In this document: piece after piece, positions 27,122 to 31,363 of the stretch
How the letters are laid out: each line of letters opens with the position of its first letter
Numbering within the stretch: position 1 is the first letter of the stretch
NCBI GenBank assembly: GCA_017511005.1
Contig: JAFWLP010000019.1
Location: forward strand, 1-64,000
Source of the DNA: Clostridiales bacterium
Lineage (GTDB): Bacteria > Bacillota > Clostridia > Saccharofermentanales > Saccharofermentanaceae
Length of the DNA stretch: 64,000 bases
Reading direction: 5' to 3'
Position numbers and translations under genes: made by a program
Notes under the pieces: model-generated
The model's input: only the letters and a program-made list of their open reading frames with translations
What the model was told of the DNA's origin: nothing
Databases searched by the model: none

Positions 27122-27206
<85 letters not shown>

Positions 27207-27250: not shown

Positions 27251-28540
27251 CTACTCTGCAGGCTTAATGATCCATTTCCGGGCACCGGGGCTTCTCCCGG
27301 AAAGCAGCAGCGCGTCCCCTTCCCTGTACACCGTGATAAAGCGTCCACTCTCTAAAACAGTCCGTATCAGATAGTTCCCTTTGCTGTCAGGAGTCAGTTT
27401 CCATCTCTGCGCATCGTAATACCCTGTATCCTTCCACAGCTTGACCGTGTTGCCCTCCGAATCACAGGCGTTCGAGAGATCTATCCTATGGGCAGGCATA
27501 TCATACGGAGAAAGAACAAAACGCCCCTTTCCGGAATACATTATGTTCCACCTGTCCGGGGCATCCGAAAGTGTAAGTGACGGTGTACCGGCCTGACCGG
27601 ACAGATAACCCCGTCCTTCCGCATCCTTTATCGTAAAGCTTCCGAGCCTGAGGGTGCTGCGCTTTGTAAGGATCCACATTTTCGGATAAATTCCGACATA
27701 CCTGGTGAACTTATCTCCAGAATACGGAACTCTTCCCGAAAGCACCTGTCTGTAGAATTCGAAGAAATCGTAATCGTTTTTGTCTGCTTCATATTTCATG
27801 TATCCAGGATACTTCTCCGGGCCCATGTATGAATGCGTAGGGGGATACTCAATATCTAACAGGGTCCCCAGATACTCAAGCTGGTGCATCCATTCGTGAA
27901 CAGCCACAGCCGTTGCGTACAATGACGGTTCTTCCGGATCTGCCAACGGAAATGTGCCGTATCGCGGTCTGTCCAGCTTGAAGGTCGAATACGGCATGGG
28001 TGCCGAGAGACCAGCCATGCAAAGACCCAATATGGCATAATGCGCACCGTAACAGCTTTTGAATGCGTTGCGTGTACGGTTCTCTTCACCTTCTGTCTGA
28101 ATGGTGGTAAACACTGTATCGTAATCACACTCATCCATATAGTTATCTATTACAGACTGAACAGTTTCCTGAGCCAGATAGAGCCAGTCCTCACCGTCAT
28201 ACAGGGTAAGCGGGAAAGCATCCTCGATAAAATGAAGATTAACAGTAATATCCAGATTATGCTCAGTTATGCACTCAACCGATTTCTCAAAGTTCAATGC
28301 AACAGCCTTGAGATATTCCCTGTCGGAAAGGTTCATGCGGAAATCCAGATCACCGAAAGTTACATGAGCAAAACCGAGCCACAGTACATTGTACTTTACG
28401 GGTTCGGAAAGAGGAGTATAATCTCCTGCACGGAACTGCTCCACAGCCTCTCCGATCATCCTGTCAATGTCTGCCGCGGCAGATTCAAAATAGGATGGCT
28501 CCTTACTTCTGGCTGTACTGTTCTTTAGAAATCCGATCAT
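27251..28540 (-). CDS. Zincin-type metallopeptidase with C-terminal ricin-type lectin domain
   Basis: A 429-residue protein. The central part carries HEWMHQLE (HExxH, near residue 212) in a context (TAVAVHEWMHQLEYLG, then DYDFFEFYRQVLSG) that suggests a zinc peptidase; no established family name comes to mind. The last ~130 residues look like a ricin B beta-trefoil (NTVKLWKDTGYYDAQRWKLTP, repeated QxW-like RWKL and KWII). No signal peptide is visible, odd for a lectin-tagged protease. ATG 28540 has no own SD; AAGGAG 17 bases upstream serves a five-codon mini-ORF that overlaps the ATG as ATGA, hinting at coupled initiation. Substrate unknown. Confidence 0.75.
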   Translation of the reverse strand: MIGFLKNSTARSKEPSYFESAAADIDRMIGEAVEQFRAGDYTPLSEPVKYNVLWLGFAHVTFGDLDFRMNLSDREYLKAVALNFEKSVECITEHNLDITVNLHFIEDAFPLTLYDGEDWLYLAQETVQSVIDNYMDECDYDTVFTTIQTEGEENRTRNAFKSCYGAHYAILGLCMAGLSAPMPYSTFKLDRPRYGTFPLADPEEPSLYATAVAVHEWMHQLEYLGTLLDIEYPPTHSYMGPEKYPGYMKYEADKNDYDFFEFYRQVLSGRVPYSGDKFTRYVGIYPKMWILTKRSTLRLGSFTIKDAEGRGYLSGQAGTPSLTLSDAPDRWNIMYSGKGRFVLSPYDMPAHRIDLSNACDSEGNTVKLWKDTGYYDAQRWKLTPDSKGNYLIRTVLESGRFITVYREGDALLLSGRSPGARKWIIKPAE

Positions 28541-28975: not shown

Positions 28976-29017
28976 TTGCACAACCCAAACCAAAATCAAT
29001 TATAATGCTGATATAAT
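28976..29017 (+). promoter_or_regulatory. Promoter region of the type I toxin RNA
   Basis: TTGCAC (28976-28981), 19 bases, TATAAT (29001-29006); a second TATAAT follows at 29012-29017. Transcription would start near 29013-29024, just before the GAGTGCTACC element that recurs inverted downstream of the toxin. Confidence 0.6.
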
Positions 29018-29052
29018 TGTTGTGGAGTGCTACCAGTACGGTAGGCGGTTGT

Positions 29053-29091
29053 CCTCCTTAAATCCATGATTCAGTTCATGGTGAAAGGAGG
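29053..29091 (+). promoter_or_regulatory. SD-masking leader hairpin of the toxin mRNA
   Basis: CCTCCTT (29053-29059) is perfectly complementary to the ribosome site AAGGAGG (29085-29091), and an inner stem CCATGA/TCATGG (29064-29081) brings them together. In the RNA the ribosome site would be closed, as in known type I toxin messages. An 11-codon leader frame (29066-29101) also overlaps the toxin start as ATGA. Confidence 0.75.
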
Positions 29092-29097
29092 TGCAGT

Positions 29098-29187
29098 ATG
29101 ACTGATTATGAAATACTGAGCGAGATGCTCACAGTCGGTATATTGATAGTTTCGATTATTGCTCTTTGTTTCAAGGCAAAGAAATAA
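29098..29187 (+). CDS. Putative type I toxin, 29-residue holin-like membrane peptide
   Basis: Tiny peptide: a short acidic head (MTDYEILSEML), one membrane helix (TVGILIVSIIALCF) and a basic tail KAKK. Layout and the opening MTxYExL match the 'putative holin-like toxin' group of Bacillota, whose members kill from inside by membrane damage. The ATG has AAGGAGG six bases upstream, but that site is sequestered by CCTCCTT in the leader. A hairpin overlaps the stop codon, and an antisense promoter faces it from 29266-29293. The complete picture (masked SD, convergent RNA, hydrophobic peptide) supports a chromosomal type I toxin-antitoxin locus. Toxicity is inference. Confidence 0.8.
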   Translation: MTDYEILSEMLTVGILIVSIIALCFKAKK

Positions 29188-29259
29188 GCCGCCCTTCGTC
29201 CAAAAAGATGCGGCTTAACAATTAAGTTCTCTTGGAGGCAACCGTCTTCCGGTAGCACT
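29180..29259 (-). ncRNA. Predicted antisense antitoxin RNA
   Basis: Expected from the minus-strand promoter at 29266-29293 to the hairpin at 29185-29217, about 75-80 nt. It would overlap the 3' part of the toxin message, as antitoxins of the TxpA/RatA and BsrG/SR4 type do. Its 5' end repeats the 5' end of the toxin RNA (GAGTGCTACC ... CGGTTG ... CCTCC). Ends are estimates. Confidence 0.55.
29185..29217. terminator. Shared hairpin between toxin and antisense RNA
   Basis: TAAGCCGC (29185-29192) and GCGGCTTA (29210-29217) form a perfect 8-bp stem. On the minus strand it is followed by TTTCTTT, a fair terminator for the antisense RNA; on the plus strand the T-run is weak, so the toxin RNA may run on into the 29234-29260 element. 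Confidence 0.65.
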
Positions 29260-29260
29260 C
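29234..29260 (+). promoter_or_regulatory. 3' element complementary to the toxin RNA 5' end
   Basis: GGAGG-CAACCG-(6)-GGTAGCACTC is the reverse complement, with small gaps, of GAGTGCTACC (29025-29034) and CGGTTGTCCTCC (29046-29057). A read-through toxin RNA could pair its two ends, competing with the SD-masking hairpin. Confidence 0.65.
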
Positions 29261-29265
29261 TTTCT

Positions 29266-29293
29266 ACTATATTTTACCCTGTATCTGCCAAAA
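29266..29293 (-). promoter_or_regulatory. Promoter of the antisense RNA
   Basis: Minus-strand TTTTGG (29288-29293), 16-base spacer, TATAGT (29266-29271), with TAAAATATAGT giving further -10-like matches. Confidence 0.5.
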
Positions 29294-29419
29294 TGCAAAT
29301 TAGGTTCTCGTTATCTTCTTACCAACACACATCTGCAAATAATTGATATCTCACAAAGCCCGAAATTTAATACGACAAAATCACTACAAAAGGGTTTGTT
29401 AATCTAAATCATAAACTCT

Positions 29420-30970
29420 TCAAGTGGGAGTTGGCATAACTAAAAAAACTATAACGATAAGCATAAACCATACTCCTAACAAAATATGAGCAGAAATAAT
29501 ACGATGTCGCTTTATCCAACTTAAAAAGGGTACGGATGGTATCAATTTAGACAAAATGGGATTAATTATGATTACTTGGAGCGCACTGACAATTTGTGAA
29601 ACTATAGTAATCCCTATATCAGAAGCTTTGGTTGCATTAGGATAAGCTATGAACAACAGCAGAAAAAACAGCAATAAAACAATTGACACAATCCATCCCA
29701 TAACGTTTCCAGCAACGGATACGGTAGCTTTGGCTCCATTTTGAAATTTCTCTGAAAAATCATCTCGTTCTTTTTTCTTCTGTTCTAAAATAGCAGCCCA
29801 TCTTTCAGCTTCTTCCTTTTGCTTTTCCGCTTCAGCCTGATTATCGACTTGTGGATAATCAGCTAAATGATTATCCTCGAGATGTTGTTCTGATTCATTA
29901 TCAACTATTTCTAATTCTACATCTCTAAGTGAGAGCATATATGATTTGTAATTTTGATAAGCCTCGTCAATATTAGCTAGAGCATTATGATCAGAGGTTT
30001 CAAAATCTATTCTCAAACCTTCACCATAGACAAGAAGCAAACCATATAAACAAATGGGGATTTGCCTATTATTATTGAATCTCTTATCAGGTGAACCATT
30101 TGCATTAACGTATTGCCAAGTTTGATCCACAACTAAAGCATCACTGCACAGCTTCCCGCTTTCTACAAAATTAATAGTAGATGACACCAACTCAATCTGT
30201 TCATAAGAATATGCTCTTATTTTGCCAGCTTTCTTTACCAGTATCCCACCTGGGAAGAATAAAACTCGACATTTCTTACTGTTAAGAATAAATGTTGGCA
30301 CATCGACCTTAACTCTAAAACCAGTATGTGCATTGGCACTTAATAGTCTAGCAACTGCATTCCCTCTGGTAACACTGCGTTGCGCACCTGCATTAACTTT
30401 TACATTTCTGTTATTCAAAGACGTTTCGACAATCCACACCTTTTGACAGCAACTAACTTCGCATAAAACATCAGTCAACTTTTTCCACTCAGATTCAGCA
30501 TATTCATCTAAATCACAATTAATTGGTGCTGAAAAAAAACGCCAAAGGATTACACCTACTAAAACAGAAATAATAAGTCCCCAAACATTAATCCAAACTG
30601 AAATGACAATTGAAATAAAGAGCCACACAAAGAATATAAATCTTGATTTGGAAATGCTTTTCAAAATTTCTTTTCCTAATGCAGAATCTTGAGAAGCATC
30701 TGTAACTCTGATAGCATCTTCGCCTTCTTCAGTATCTATTGGAGGTTTATAAGCTTGTACTCTACCAGATTGGTTGTTTCTGATTCCATTTTTTCTGTTA
30801 CCAATTTTCTGTCGATAATAGAGACCATGTCTGCCGAGATGAACATAGGTACCTCTTGGACCAAAAGAAACTCTGGCTCCCTTAACTCCGGTAGATACCC
30901 CAACACCTGATTTAGAGAAATTGAGCCTGAAGGGACCAACCGATTTGCTTTTCCTGAAATATAAACCCAT
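29420..30970 (-). CDS. DUF4236 domain membrane protein
   Basis: A 516-residue protein. Residues 1-55 are a DUF4236 domain: MGLYFRKSKSVGPFRLNFSKSG, GVKGARVSFGPRGTYVHLGRHGLYYRQ. Two membrane helices follow at ~103-140, then a soluble domain of ~240 residues (VVDQTWQYVNANGSPDKRF resembles the restriction-endonuclease-free part of other DUF4236 proteins), a charged coiled coil (EAEKQKEEAERWAAILEQKK, ~370-395) and two or three C-terminal helices. ATG 30970 has GGGAGG six bases upstream; a TTG two codons earlier touches it. Base composition is clearly more AT-rich than its neighbours, which fits acquisition together with the toxin locus. Function unknown. Confidence 0.8.
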   Translation of the reverse strand: MGLYFRKSKSVGPFRLNFSKSGVGVSTGVKGARVSFGPRGTYVHLGRHGLYYRQKIGNRKNGIRNNQSGRVQAYKPPIDTEEGEDAIRVTDASQDSALGKEILKSISKSRFIFFVWLFISIVISVWINVWGLIISVLVGVILWRFFSAPINCDLDEYAESEWKKLTDVLCEVSCCQKVWIVETSLNNRNVKVNAGAQRSVTRGNAVARLLSANAHTGFRVKVDVPTFILNSKKCRVLFFPGGILVKKAGKIRAYSYEQIELVSSTINFVESGKLCSDALVVDQTWQYVNANGSPDKRFNNNRQIPICLYGLLLVYGEGLRIDFETSDHNALANIDEAYQNYKSYMLSLRDVELEIVDNESEQHLEDNHLADYPQVDNQAEAEKQKEEAERWAAILEQKKKERDDFSEKFQNGAKATVSVAGNVMGWIVSIVLLLFFLLLFIAYPNATKASDIGITIVSQIVSALQVIIINPILSKLIPSVPFLSWIKRHRIISAHILLGVWFMLIVIVFLVMPTPT

Positions 30971-31363
30971 CGTCAACCTCCCATATATCTGTTATATATG
31001 AACCTTTGTATTTCGTGAAACCAATAAACATTATCGAATAATAAAATTATATAGTATCGCCTCTGAAAAATGTTAGTTGGTAAATGAACAGACTTTTAAT
31101 TGATTCAAAACTTCTATGGTTAGTTCAAAGTCAAAACCACATATTCTTGAAGCCAAAGAAAAAAAGATGATATGTTTGAAATAAACAATTATCTAAAGCT
31201 AAACATATTATAATCAGGCAGGTGTACAATAAGGTCATTGCAAATTCTTGTTTTTCGAAACATCCTATGCAATTTCTTGTCCTTTTTGCTGACACTATTG
31301 CACAGATTCAGGCGCACCTAGTGCGTGCCTGGTTTGCCAGCAGTCAGTCTTTCGTCCCGCACA
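30971..31363. other. AT-rich gap without a recognisable gene
   Basis: About 390 bases. It holds a minus-strand TATAAT at 31046-31051 that may belong to the DUF4236 gene, and an imperfect GC-rich hairpin near 31312-31334 (CGCAC/GTGCG core) just after the ABC exporter stop, without a T-run. No coding potential seen. Confidence 0.5.

What the first reader, a model, noticed from the sequence alone, without database searches (positions are those of the whole stretch)
28976..29293. Probable new chromosomal type I toxin-antitoxin locus
Within 320 bases there are a plus-strand promoter, a leader whose CCTCCTT is perfectly complementary to the toxin ribosome site AAGGAGG, a 29-residue hydrophobic holin-like peptide, a hairpin at the stop codon and an opposing minus-strand promoter. 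Type I toxins of the TxpA, BsrG and holin-like groups share this layout. The copy sits in an AT-rich patch with a decayed gene and a DUF4236 gene.
Basis: partly seen in the sequence, partly recalled or inferred. Interest (0 to 1): 0.85.

Follow-up and report, generated by a model that had tools for sequence, protein, structure and literature searches.

The report
Compact BsrG-like type I toxin-antitoxin locus
A clostridial bacterium carries a tiny membrane-peptide gene whose messenger RNA is predicted to fold into a closed, silent loop and to be kept in check by a small antisense RNA; it looks like an uncatalogued branch of a known kind of bacterial self-poison switch.

Summary
The 29-residue peptide (29098-29187, +) is a near-hit to Pfam Hol_Tox (PF16935), in a predicted type I toxin-antitoxin locus of about 240 bases. 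Related loci occur in at least 30 of 85 genomes of the genus, and in Lachnospiraceae, Ruminococcus and Negativicutes.

Three features were missed. (1) The leader (29025-29056) is mirrored downstream (29234-29260). The arms can pair, closing the toxin RNA into a panhandle (fold z -7.3), and they co-vary: in 92 distinct loci arm identity is 0.89-0.92, against 0.77 with partners swapped. (2) The stop-codon hairpin qualifies as a terminator for the antisense RNA in 88 of 92 loci but for the toxin RNA in 24 of 92, so the toxin RNA probably reads through. (3) The antisense promoter is usually the better one (10 or more of 12 consensus matches in 97 versus 35 of 125 loci; in the window 9 versus 8).

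All 8 Bacilli holin-like toxin loci examined, 5 of them Rfam BsrG, have such arms. This is a compact clostridial variant of the TxpA/BsrG kind, not a new principle. No Rfam family reached threshold. Expression, toxicity and antitoxin action are untested.

The parts
29009..29017 (+). extended -10 (TGATATAAT) of the predicted toxin promoter; RNA start near 29024-29026
   Evidence: sequence; family-wide toxin promoter score 8.88 vs 7.17 shuffled, window 8 of 12
29025..29056 (+). 5' arm of the toxin RNA (block A GAGTGCTACC 29025-29034; block B GGCGGTTGTCCTC 29044-29056)
   Evidence: conserved leader; pairs with 29234-29260
29053..29059 (+). anti-Shine-Dalgarno CCTCCTT, 7 bp with the SD
   Evidence: MFE folds
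29065..29081 (+). small hairpin CCATGA/TCATGG inside the SD-sequestering stem
29085..29091 (+). Shine-Dalgarno AAGGAGG, predicted paired in short and long RNA
29098..29187 (+). 29-aa hydrophobic peptide (putative type I toxin), PF16935 near-hit
   Evidence: (21.8 bits, cut-off 23.3), coding conservation
29185..29217 (.). stop-codon hairpin TAAGCCGC...GCGGCTTA; predicted terminator of the antisense RNA, not of the toxin RNA
   Evidence: minus strand -14 kcal/mol with T run; no plus-strand terminator
29234..29260 (+). 3' arm GGAGGCAACCGTCTTCCGGTAGCACTC, complementary to the 5' arm; its complement is the 5' end of the antisense RNA
29172..29263 (-). predicted antitoxin RNA (about 85-92 nt): 5' hairpin then terminator
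   Evidence: fold (z -2.3, 6 of 200 shuffles as good); terminator
29271..29299 (-). predicted antitoxin promoter (TTTGCA-17-TAAAAT)
   Evidence: 9 of 12 in the window, family's commonest boxes TTGACA and TATAAT

Best explanation
The locus is a chromosomal type I toxin-antitoxin module of the TxpA/BsrG kind in compact form. The toxin RNA starts near 29025 and encodes a 29-aa membrane peptide. Its ribosome site is hidden from birth by the leader's CCTCCTT (inferred from folding). The RNA reads through the stop-codon hairpin, and its 5' leader pairs with a mirrored arm at 29234-29260 (supported by co-variation), closing it into an inert, probably stable panhandle. A convergent promoter, stronger than the toxin's in most relatives, makes an approximately 90-nt antisense RNA that begins in that arm and ends at the stop-codon hairpin. 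It is fully complementary to the toxin RNA's 3' region, opens the closing helix, and most likely triggers RNase III decay (inferred from txpA/RatA and bsrG/SR4). If antisense synthesis fails, the long-lived toxin RNA accumulates and is eventually translated; the peptide then disturbs the producer's membrane (not tested).
For: Peptide: PF16935 21.8 bits; 30 of 98 family peptides match PF16935, 10 match ComI and 7 match PepG1. Coding: pS/pN 7.3. Closing helix: z -7.3; 96.9% of cells paired vs 27-55% when slid, 25 double-change cells vs 7.9 shuffled, 0 of 500; 92 loci matched 0.887/0.916 vs shuffled 0.767/0.771; panhandle predicted in 112 of 116 long RNAs. Sense-strand identity: differences fit sense-strand G.U 79 vs antisense-strand 26, plus a column, left out of these figures, that is G in the leader and A in the antisense in 85 of 92, never reversed. 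Terminator: minus strand 88 of 92, plus 24 of 92, plus-strand shuffles 0 of 92. Promoter: antisense scores higher in 89 of 125, equal in 17, lower in 19. SD mean unpaired probability 0.16-0.28 in each isoform. Comparators: 8 of 8 Bacilli loci examined have complementary arms; 5 of 8 are Rfam BsrG, whose curated structure has an outer 5'-3' helix.
Against: No transcript, toxicity or antitoxin data. The window peptide is just under the Pfam cut-off. Rfam BsrG scores 10.7 against 55. No plus-strand terminator follows the 3' arm in the window, and one was found in only 15 of 92 loci (shuffled 4), against 8 of 8 Bacilli comparators, so the toxin RNA 3' end is unexplained. In 24 of 92 loci the stop hairpin could terminate the toxin RNA before the 3' arm. 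The minus-strand T run partly follows from C-terminal lysine codons (82 of 92 peptides end in K). The window's own promoters score 8 and 9 of 12, hardly apart. The wobble bias weakens against a conservative column null (expected ratio 1.5; p 8.8e-4, or 6.3e-3 for 70 clusters), and one column goes the other way (8 against 1). Two of five measures do not stand out from shuffles (pairs with double changes 6 vs 4.0, 33 of 500; pair types 17 vs 18.5, 478 of 500).
Confidence: 0.8

Rival explanations
1. par/Fst-like module: both RNAs end at the shared stop-codon hairpin (bidirectional terminator) and the repeats at the two 5' ends mediate contact between the RNAs.
For: Convergent promoters and a hairpin between them, as described for par (passages of PMC7472228). 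In 24 of 92 loci the hairpin qualifies on the plus strand.
Against: par uses DNA direct repeats, giving complementary RNAs; here the repeats are inverted, so the RNA 5' ends are alike rather than complementary. No plus-strand terminator in the window. The peptide's only Pfam matches at E up to 10 were PF16935 and a poor plant-domain match.
Confidence: 0.1
2. The mirrored arms are terminal inverted repeats of a small mobile element carrying the peptide gene, not an RNA structure.
For: Inverted ends, patchy distribution (4 of 391 class genomes by exact pattern, own genome and two of its genus included), tandem copies.
Against: No target-site duplications seen by eye in the loci printed (not tested systematically). 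Similarity begins near the predicted RNA starts. Differences favour sense-strand G.U pairs, which DNA repeats would not require. The element keeps promoters, terminator and coding constraint.
Confidence: 0.04
3. A small membrane peptide with a physiological (non-toxic) role, controlled by antisense RNA and mRNA structure.
For: No toxicity evidence. NCBIfam ComI (competence inhibitor) matches 10 of 98 family members.
Against: Layout, family and hidden ribosome site are those of type I toxins.
Confidence: 0.12

Closest known systems
bsrG/SR4 and bsrE/SR5 of Bacillus subtilis (Rfam RF01412 BsrG)
   Same: Small hydrophobic toxin, SD hidden in GC pairs, antisense at the 3' end (passages); Rfam BsrG relatives have an outer 5'-3' helix and a stop-region hairpin
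   Different: No Rfam match above cut-off here; toxin RNA terminator after the 3' arm usually missing; antisense about 90 nt (inferred) instead of 163-180 nt and starting inside the closing arm
txpA/RatA (Rfam RF01776)
   Same: Convergent antisense, decay-type antitoxin; the RatA model has a CCG-loop-CGG hairpin like the antisense 5' hairpin here (by eye)
   Different: RatA is about 220 nt; no Rfam match here
SprG1/PepG1 and ComI peptides (NCBIfam NF041589, NF052249)
   Same: 7 and 10 of 98 peptides carried by the same RNA element match
   Different: The window peptide itself matches neither at E up to 0.01 (weak ComI 0.011)
aapA/IsoA (Helicobacter) and hok/Sok
   Same: Full-length toxin mRNA locked by a 5'-3' interaction (passages of PMC6733600)
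   Different: For aapA the 3' element is described as occluding the ribosome site; here the SD is hidden by the leader itself and the closing helix sits beside it
par/Fst of pAD1
   Same: Convergent RNAs around a hairpin after the toxin gene
   Different: Direct, not inverted, repeats (passages); different peptide family

Membership tests
TxpA/BsrG-type type I toxin-antitoxin systems | Small hydrophobic peptide with charged C-terminus | tested here: met
   29 aa, hydrophobic core, ends KAKK; coding constraint
TxpA/BsrG-type type I toxin-antitoxin systems | Ribosome site sequestered by mRNA structure | tested here: met
   by prediction only: CCUCCUU:AAGGAGG in both isoforms; family SD unpaired 0.16-0.28
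TxpA/BsrG-type type I toxin-antitoxin systems | 5'-3' closing helix as in the Rfam BsrG structure | tested here: met
   conditional on read-through of the stop hairpin
TxpA/BsrG-type type I toxin-antitoxin systems | Convergent antisense RNA overlapping the 3' end | tested here: inconclusive
   promoter and terminator predicted and conserved; RNA not observed
TxpA/BsrG-type type I toxin-antitoxin systems | Toxin mRNA terminator downstream of the 3' arm (seen in 8 of 8 Bacilli comparators) | tested here: not met
   none in the window; 15 of 92 relatives, shuffled 4
TxpA/BsrG-type type I toxin-antitoxin systems | Peptide toxic; antitoxin lowers toxin mRNA or translation | not testable with these tools
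   needs expression experiments
Rfam RF01412 BsrG (strict RNA family) | Score above gathering threshold | tested here: not met
   10.7 bits vs 55; no BsrG hit in 15 sampled loci at gathering; best 22.5 among 11 loci searched laxly, at a contig end
Pfam PF16935 Hol_Tox | Score above gathering cut-off 23.3 | tested here: inconclusive
   window 21.8 bits, E 1.7e-4; same-genus homologues above cut-off
par/Fst | DNA direct repeats making the two RNA 5' regions complementary | tested here: not met
   repeats are inverted

The most novel reading that the evidence does not exclude
A widespread, uncatalogued clostridial RNA chassis for type I toxins. The antitoxin's first ~28 nt are a locus-specific copy of the toxin leader, so antitoxin and leader compete for the same downstream arm, and a conserved G.U weakens the leader's side of that contest. 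The toxin RNA mostly has no terminator of its own, so its 3' end is set by the closing helix or by antitoxin transcription. The chassis carries several dissimilar membrane peptides in Clostridia and Negativicutes.
Probability: 0.35. Interest if true: 0.6.

Novelty: new variant of a known kind. Interest (0 to 1): 0.42.

Why it matters
It would add a large uncatalogued branch (no Rfam family reached threshold in the loci searched) of a known regulatory RNA class in Clostridia and Negativicutes, with cultured hosts in which it can be tested. The co-varying arms give sequence evidence for a closed toxin mRNA and pose a defined question: how is the 3' end of a toxin RNA made when the antitoxin promoter abuts it? 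It also shows one RNA control element carrying different peptides.

Tried and rejected
Direct-repeat (par) reading: rejected because the repeats are inverted. Mobile-element ends: no target duplications by eye. Idea that the panhandle frees the SD: folding does not support it as a rule; mean SD unpaired rises only from 0.16 to 0.28 (genus) and 0.18 to 0.27 (wide) and stays 0.06 in the window's long RNA. It rose by more than 0.2 in 26 of 116 loci and fell by more than 0.2 in 4. Idea that leader GGCGGTT pairs with CCGCCC after the stop: plausible by eye, not tested. Phage or plasmid copies of the window peptide: no tblastn match at E up to 1. Leader pattern with up to 2 mismatches in relatives: 5 of 59 genomes, but only the window's own match is a toxin locus by eye. 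First covariation attempt kept only 22 loci because of alignment truncation; replaced. The arm test used too lax a gap penalty; replaced by duplex energies. Exact-stem search for the stop hairpin (64 of 135) replaced. Alignment A2 used wrong slices and was ignored.

Rows dropped: one search found 110 candidate ORFs at 135 pattern matches in 131 loci (25 loci had none). 144 loci entered after six wide-set duplicates of genus loci were left out by name; 9 failed; 135 remained (38 genus, 97 wide); 8 of 135 failed; 127 collapsed to 92 distinct. The failures include real loci with truncated or diverged arms (for example Ruminococcus bromii L148) and chance hits. Two more duplicates (L166 and L173 repeat G031 and G089 contigs) fell out only at de-duplication, so the 135-row count and the 116-row count may hold a few repeats. 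The middle's output was cut from view.

Full report
OBSERVATION. A promoter-like match on its own means little here: the simple scan found 15 in 2.5 kb against 7.7 in shuffles. The conserved start of the RNA near 29025 points to the second -10 box (29012-29017, preceded by TG) rather than the one cited. The peptide matches Pfam Hol_Tox with E 1.7e-4 and 21.8 bits, just below the cut-off of 23.3. The genome has a second, diverged copy on another contig.

RELATIVES. PF16935 hits 8 of 59 genomes searched (own genome included), 7 over the cut-off, all in the same genus. A short leader motif occurs in 50 of 85 genomes of the genus. About a third of its 78 matches may be chance: I count 23 matches of the reversed control pattern in that table. 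Reading the loci gave 41 distinct toxin loci with the leader, which by my count lie in 30 of the 85 genomes. Eighteen of the 119 are outside Bacillota by title (Streptomyces, Acidobacteria and others): 16 have no candidate ORF and the other two failed the arm test, so they look like chance. Of the 101 others, 97 have a candidate hydrophobic ORF, though not all pass the arm test. Carriers with such an ORF include Eisenbergiella tayi, Ruminococcus bromii, Pseudobutyrivibrio, Hungatella hathewayi, Schwartzia succinivorans, Anaerovibrio lipolyticus and a Phascolarctobacterium MAG; that the last three are Negativicutes is recalled. In an even draw from the class 4 of 391 genomes carry the exact pattern: own, two of its genus and one other.

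ANATOMY. In the alignment of 12 loci of the genus the order is constant: leader, SD, peptide, hairpin starting at the stop codon, mirrored arm; promoters lie outside on both sides. The mirrored arm is the reverse complement of the leader, so the predicted antisense RNA begins with a near-copy of the toxin RNA's first ~30 nt. Read as sense RNA, the two arms can pair: the 238-nt window RNA folds at -93 kcal/mol (shuffles -60.1, z -7.3, 0 of 200), with a closing helix of 22 pairs and the CCUCCUU:AAGGAGG stem intact inside it. The version ending at the stop hairpin keeps the same SD stem (z -4.1). The antisense RNA folds into a 5' hairpin and a terminator (z -2.3).

IS THE CLOSING HELIX REAL? On the 12-locus alignment 96.9% of cells pair against 27-55% when slid; 25 cells have both sides changed against 7.9 in shuffles; covariation 0.348 against 0.209, 0 of 500. 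Two measures do not stand out: pairs with double changes 6 against 4.0 (33 of 500) and further pair types 17 against 18.5 (478 of 500). The structure was derived from one of these rows, so the slid control leans its way. On 92 distinct loci the leader and its own antisense 5' end agree in 88.7% (27 genus loci) and 91.6% (65 wide loci) of 18 compared columns, against 76.7% and 77.1% with swapped partners (maxima 81.3% and 79.7% of 1000 shuffles). Where they differ, the difference is a G.U pair on the sense strand 79 times and on the antisense strand 26 times (48 others). A nineteenth column, left out of these figures, is G in the leader and A in the antisense in 85 of 92 loci and never the reverse. 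Against a column-composition null (expected ratio 1.5) the bias has p 8.8e-4, and 6.3e-3 on 70 cluster representatives. Column A6 goes the other way, 8 to 1. Relatedness of loci is only partly controlled. Together this favours pairing within the sense transcript over a DNA-level repeat. ViennaRNA forms the panhandle (block B over 50% paired to the arm) in 112 of 116 long RNAs.

DOES THE TOXIN RNA REACH THE 3' ARM? The stop-codon hairpin qualifies as an intrinsic terminator on the minus strand in 88 of 92 loci and on the plus strand in 24 of 92 (plus-strand sequence shuffled once each: 0 of 92). In the window only the minus strand qualifies. Lysine codons at the peptide's end supply part of the minus-strand T run (82 of 92 peptides end in K), so the asymmetry is partly a coding by-product. 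Still, the hairpin looks chiefly like the antisense RNA's terminator, and the toxin RNA would usually read through it. A plus-strand terminator after the arm was seen in only 15 of 92 (4 in shuffles) and not in the window, so the toxin RNA's 3' end remains unexplained. The antisense promoter matches 10 or more of 12 consensus bases in 97 of 125 loci against 35 of 125 for the toxin promoter; it scores higher in 89, equal in 17, lower in 19. In the window the scores are 9 and 8.

PEPTIDES. Of 98 distinct family peptides (of 126; near-duplicates left out), 30 match PF16935, 10 match ComI and 7 match PepG1; members may match more than one. The others match no toxin family in those two libraries at E 0.01, so one RNA element carries several dissimilar hydrophobic peptides. 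The 29-aa form is under coding constraint (25 distinct CDSs, pS/pN 7.3).

COMPARISON WITH KNOWN SYSTEMS. I examined 8 of 33 plasmid and phage hits to one family peptide, loci L221-L228 of Bacilli, several of them related to each other. All 8 have complementary leader and downstream arms (z -2.9 to -5.3; 7 of 8 beat all 200 shuffles; family median z -5.5, 132 of 135 beat all 50). Five of the eight are Rfam BsrG above threshold and one has RatA. The BsrG consensus structure printed by cmscan has an outermost 5'-3' helix. A review reports that SR4 pairs with the 3' part of helix P1 of bsrG RNA and that txpA, bsrE and bsrG hide their ribosome sites in 4-5 GC pairs (PMC6562991, passages and sections 7-8); another that RNase III degrades bsrG mRNA when SR4 binds (PMC7430163, passages). 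I therefore read the clostridial element as a compact relative of these. All 8 comparators have a toxin terminator after the arm and 6 of 8 an antisense terminator at the stop hairpin; the clostridial loci usually lack the former. In the window and the sampled relatives no Rfam family reached threshold over the element.

MECHANISM. Shown by sequence comparison: conserved parts, co-varying arms, strand bias of the terminator, usually stronger antisense promoter. Inferred: SD hidden co-transcriptionally (predicted unpaired 0.17-0.19 in nascent RNA), stability of the closed RNA, antisense invasion of the 3' arm and RNase III decay, membrane toxicity. Folding did not decide whether the closing helix raises or lowers translation: mean SD accessibility goes from 0.16 to 0.28 in genus loci and from 0.18 to 0.27 in wide loci.

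LITERATURE. Searches for Hol-Tox terms, for type I systems with Lachnospiraceae (no paper), in Clostridia, with TxpA and with TxpA plus gut clostridia (349 papers, 20 listed) showed no account of this element in the listings. The Clostridia review (PMC6563280, outline and section 5) says C. difficile toxins lack sequence homology to the earlier ones. The library holds only open-licence papers and several lists were capped, so absence there is weak evidence.

VERDICT. A real, predicted type I toxin-antitoxin locus: a compact clostridial variant of the TxpA/BsrG kind. Interest 0.42.

Noticed in passing
G000:C5:18442-18630 (L002): Second copy in the same genome whose leader has an extra hairpin-like segment between the two arm blocks.
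   Followed up: partly
L025, L028, L037, L056, L073, L077, L078: Leaders with an extra segment of about 15-23 nt, hairpin-like by eye, inserted at the same place between block A and block B; the arms still match.
   Followed up: no
L134 (Megasphaera sp. NM10): Leader, stop-type hairpin and mirrored arm are present but no peptide ORF was found between them: the RNA frame seems to have outlived its toxin gene.
   Followed up: no
L004, L016, L049 (three copies), L064, L194: Tandem or clustered copies of the module within about 0.3-1.1 kb.
   Followed up: no
L014 (G011:C11): Copy beside an intact one that by eye has lost its leader and start region: a decaying module.
   Followed up: no
L094, L113, L119 and other Lachnospiraceae/Veillonellaceae loci: Longer leaders with chained GGAGGG/CCCTCC segments (leader CCCTC, GGAGGG, CCCTCC, SD GGAGGG) that could form alternative hairpins before the SD.
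   Followed up: no
window 29420-30976 (-): 518-aa ORF with an N-terminal DUF4236 domain and a weak, below cut-off DUF2207-like C-terminus beside the module.
   Followed up: partly
window 27122-27203 (+) and 27251-28540 (-): tRNA gene next to a gene with a ricin-type lectin domain (PF14200) at its C-terminus.
   Followed up: no
L209, L210, L211, L213, L216, L218, L220: The leader plus a small hydrophobic ORF occurs in 7 of 12 viral contigs that hit the pattern, so some copies may travel with prophages.
   Followed up: partly
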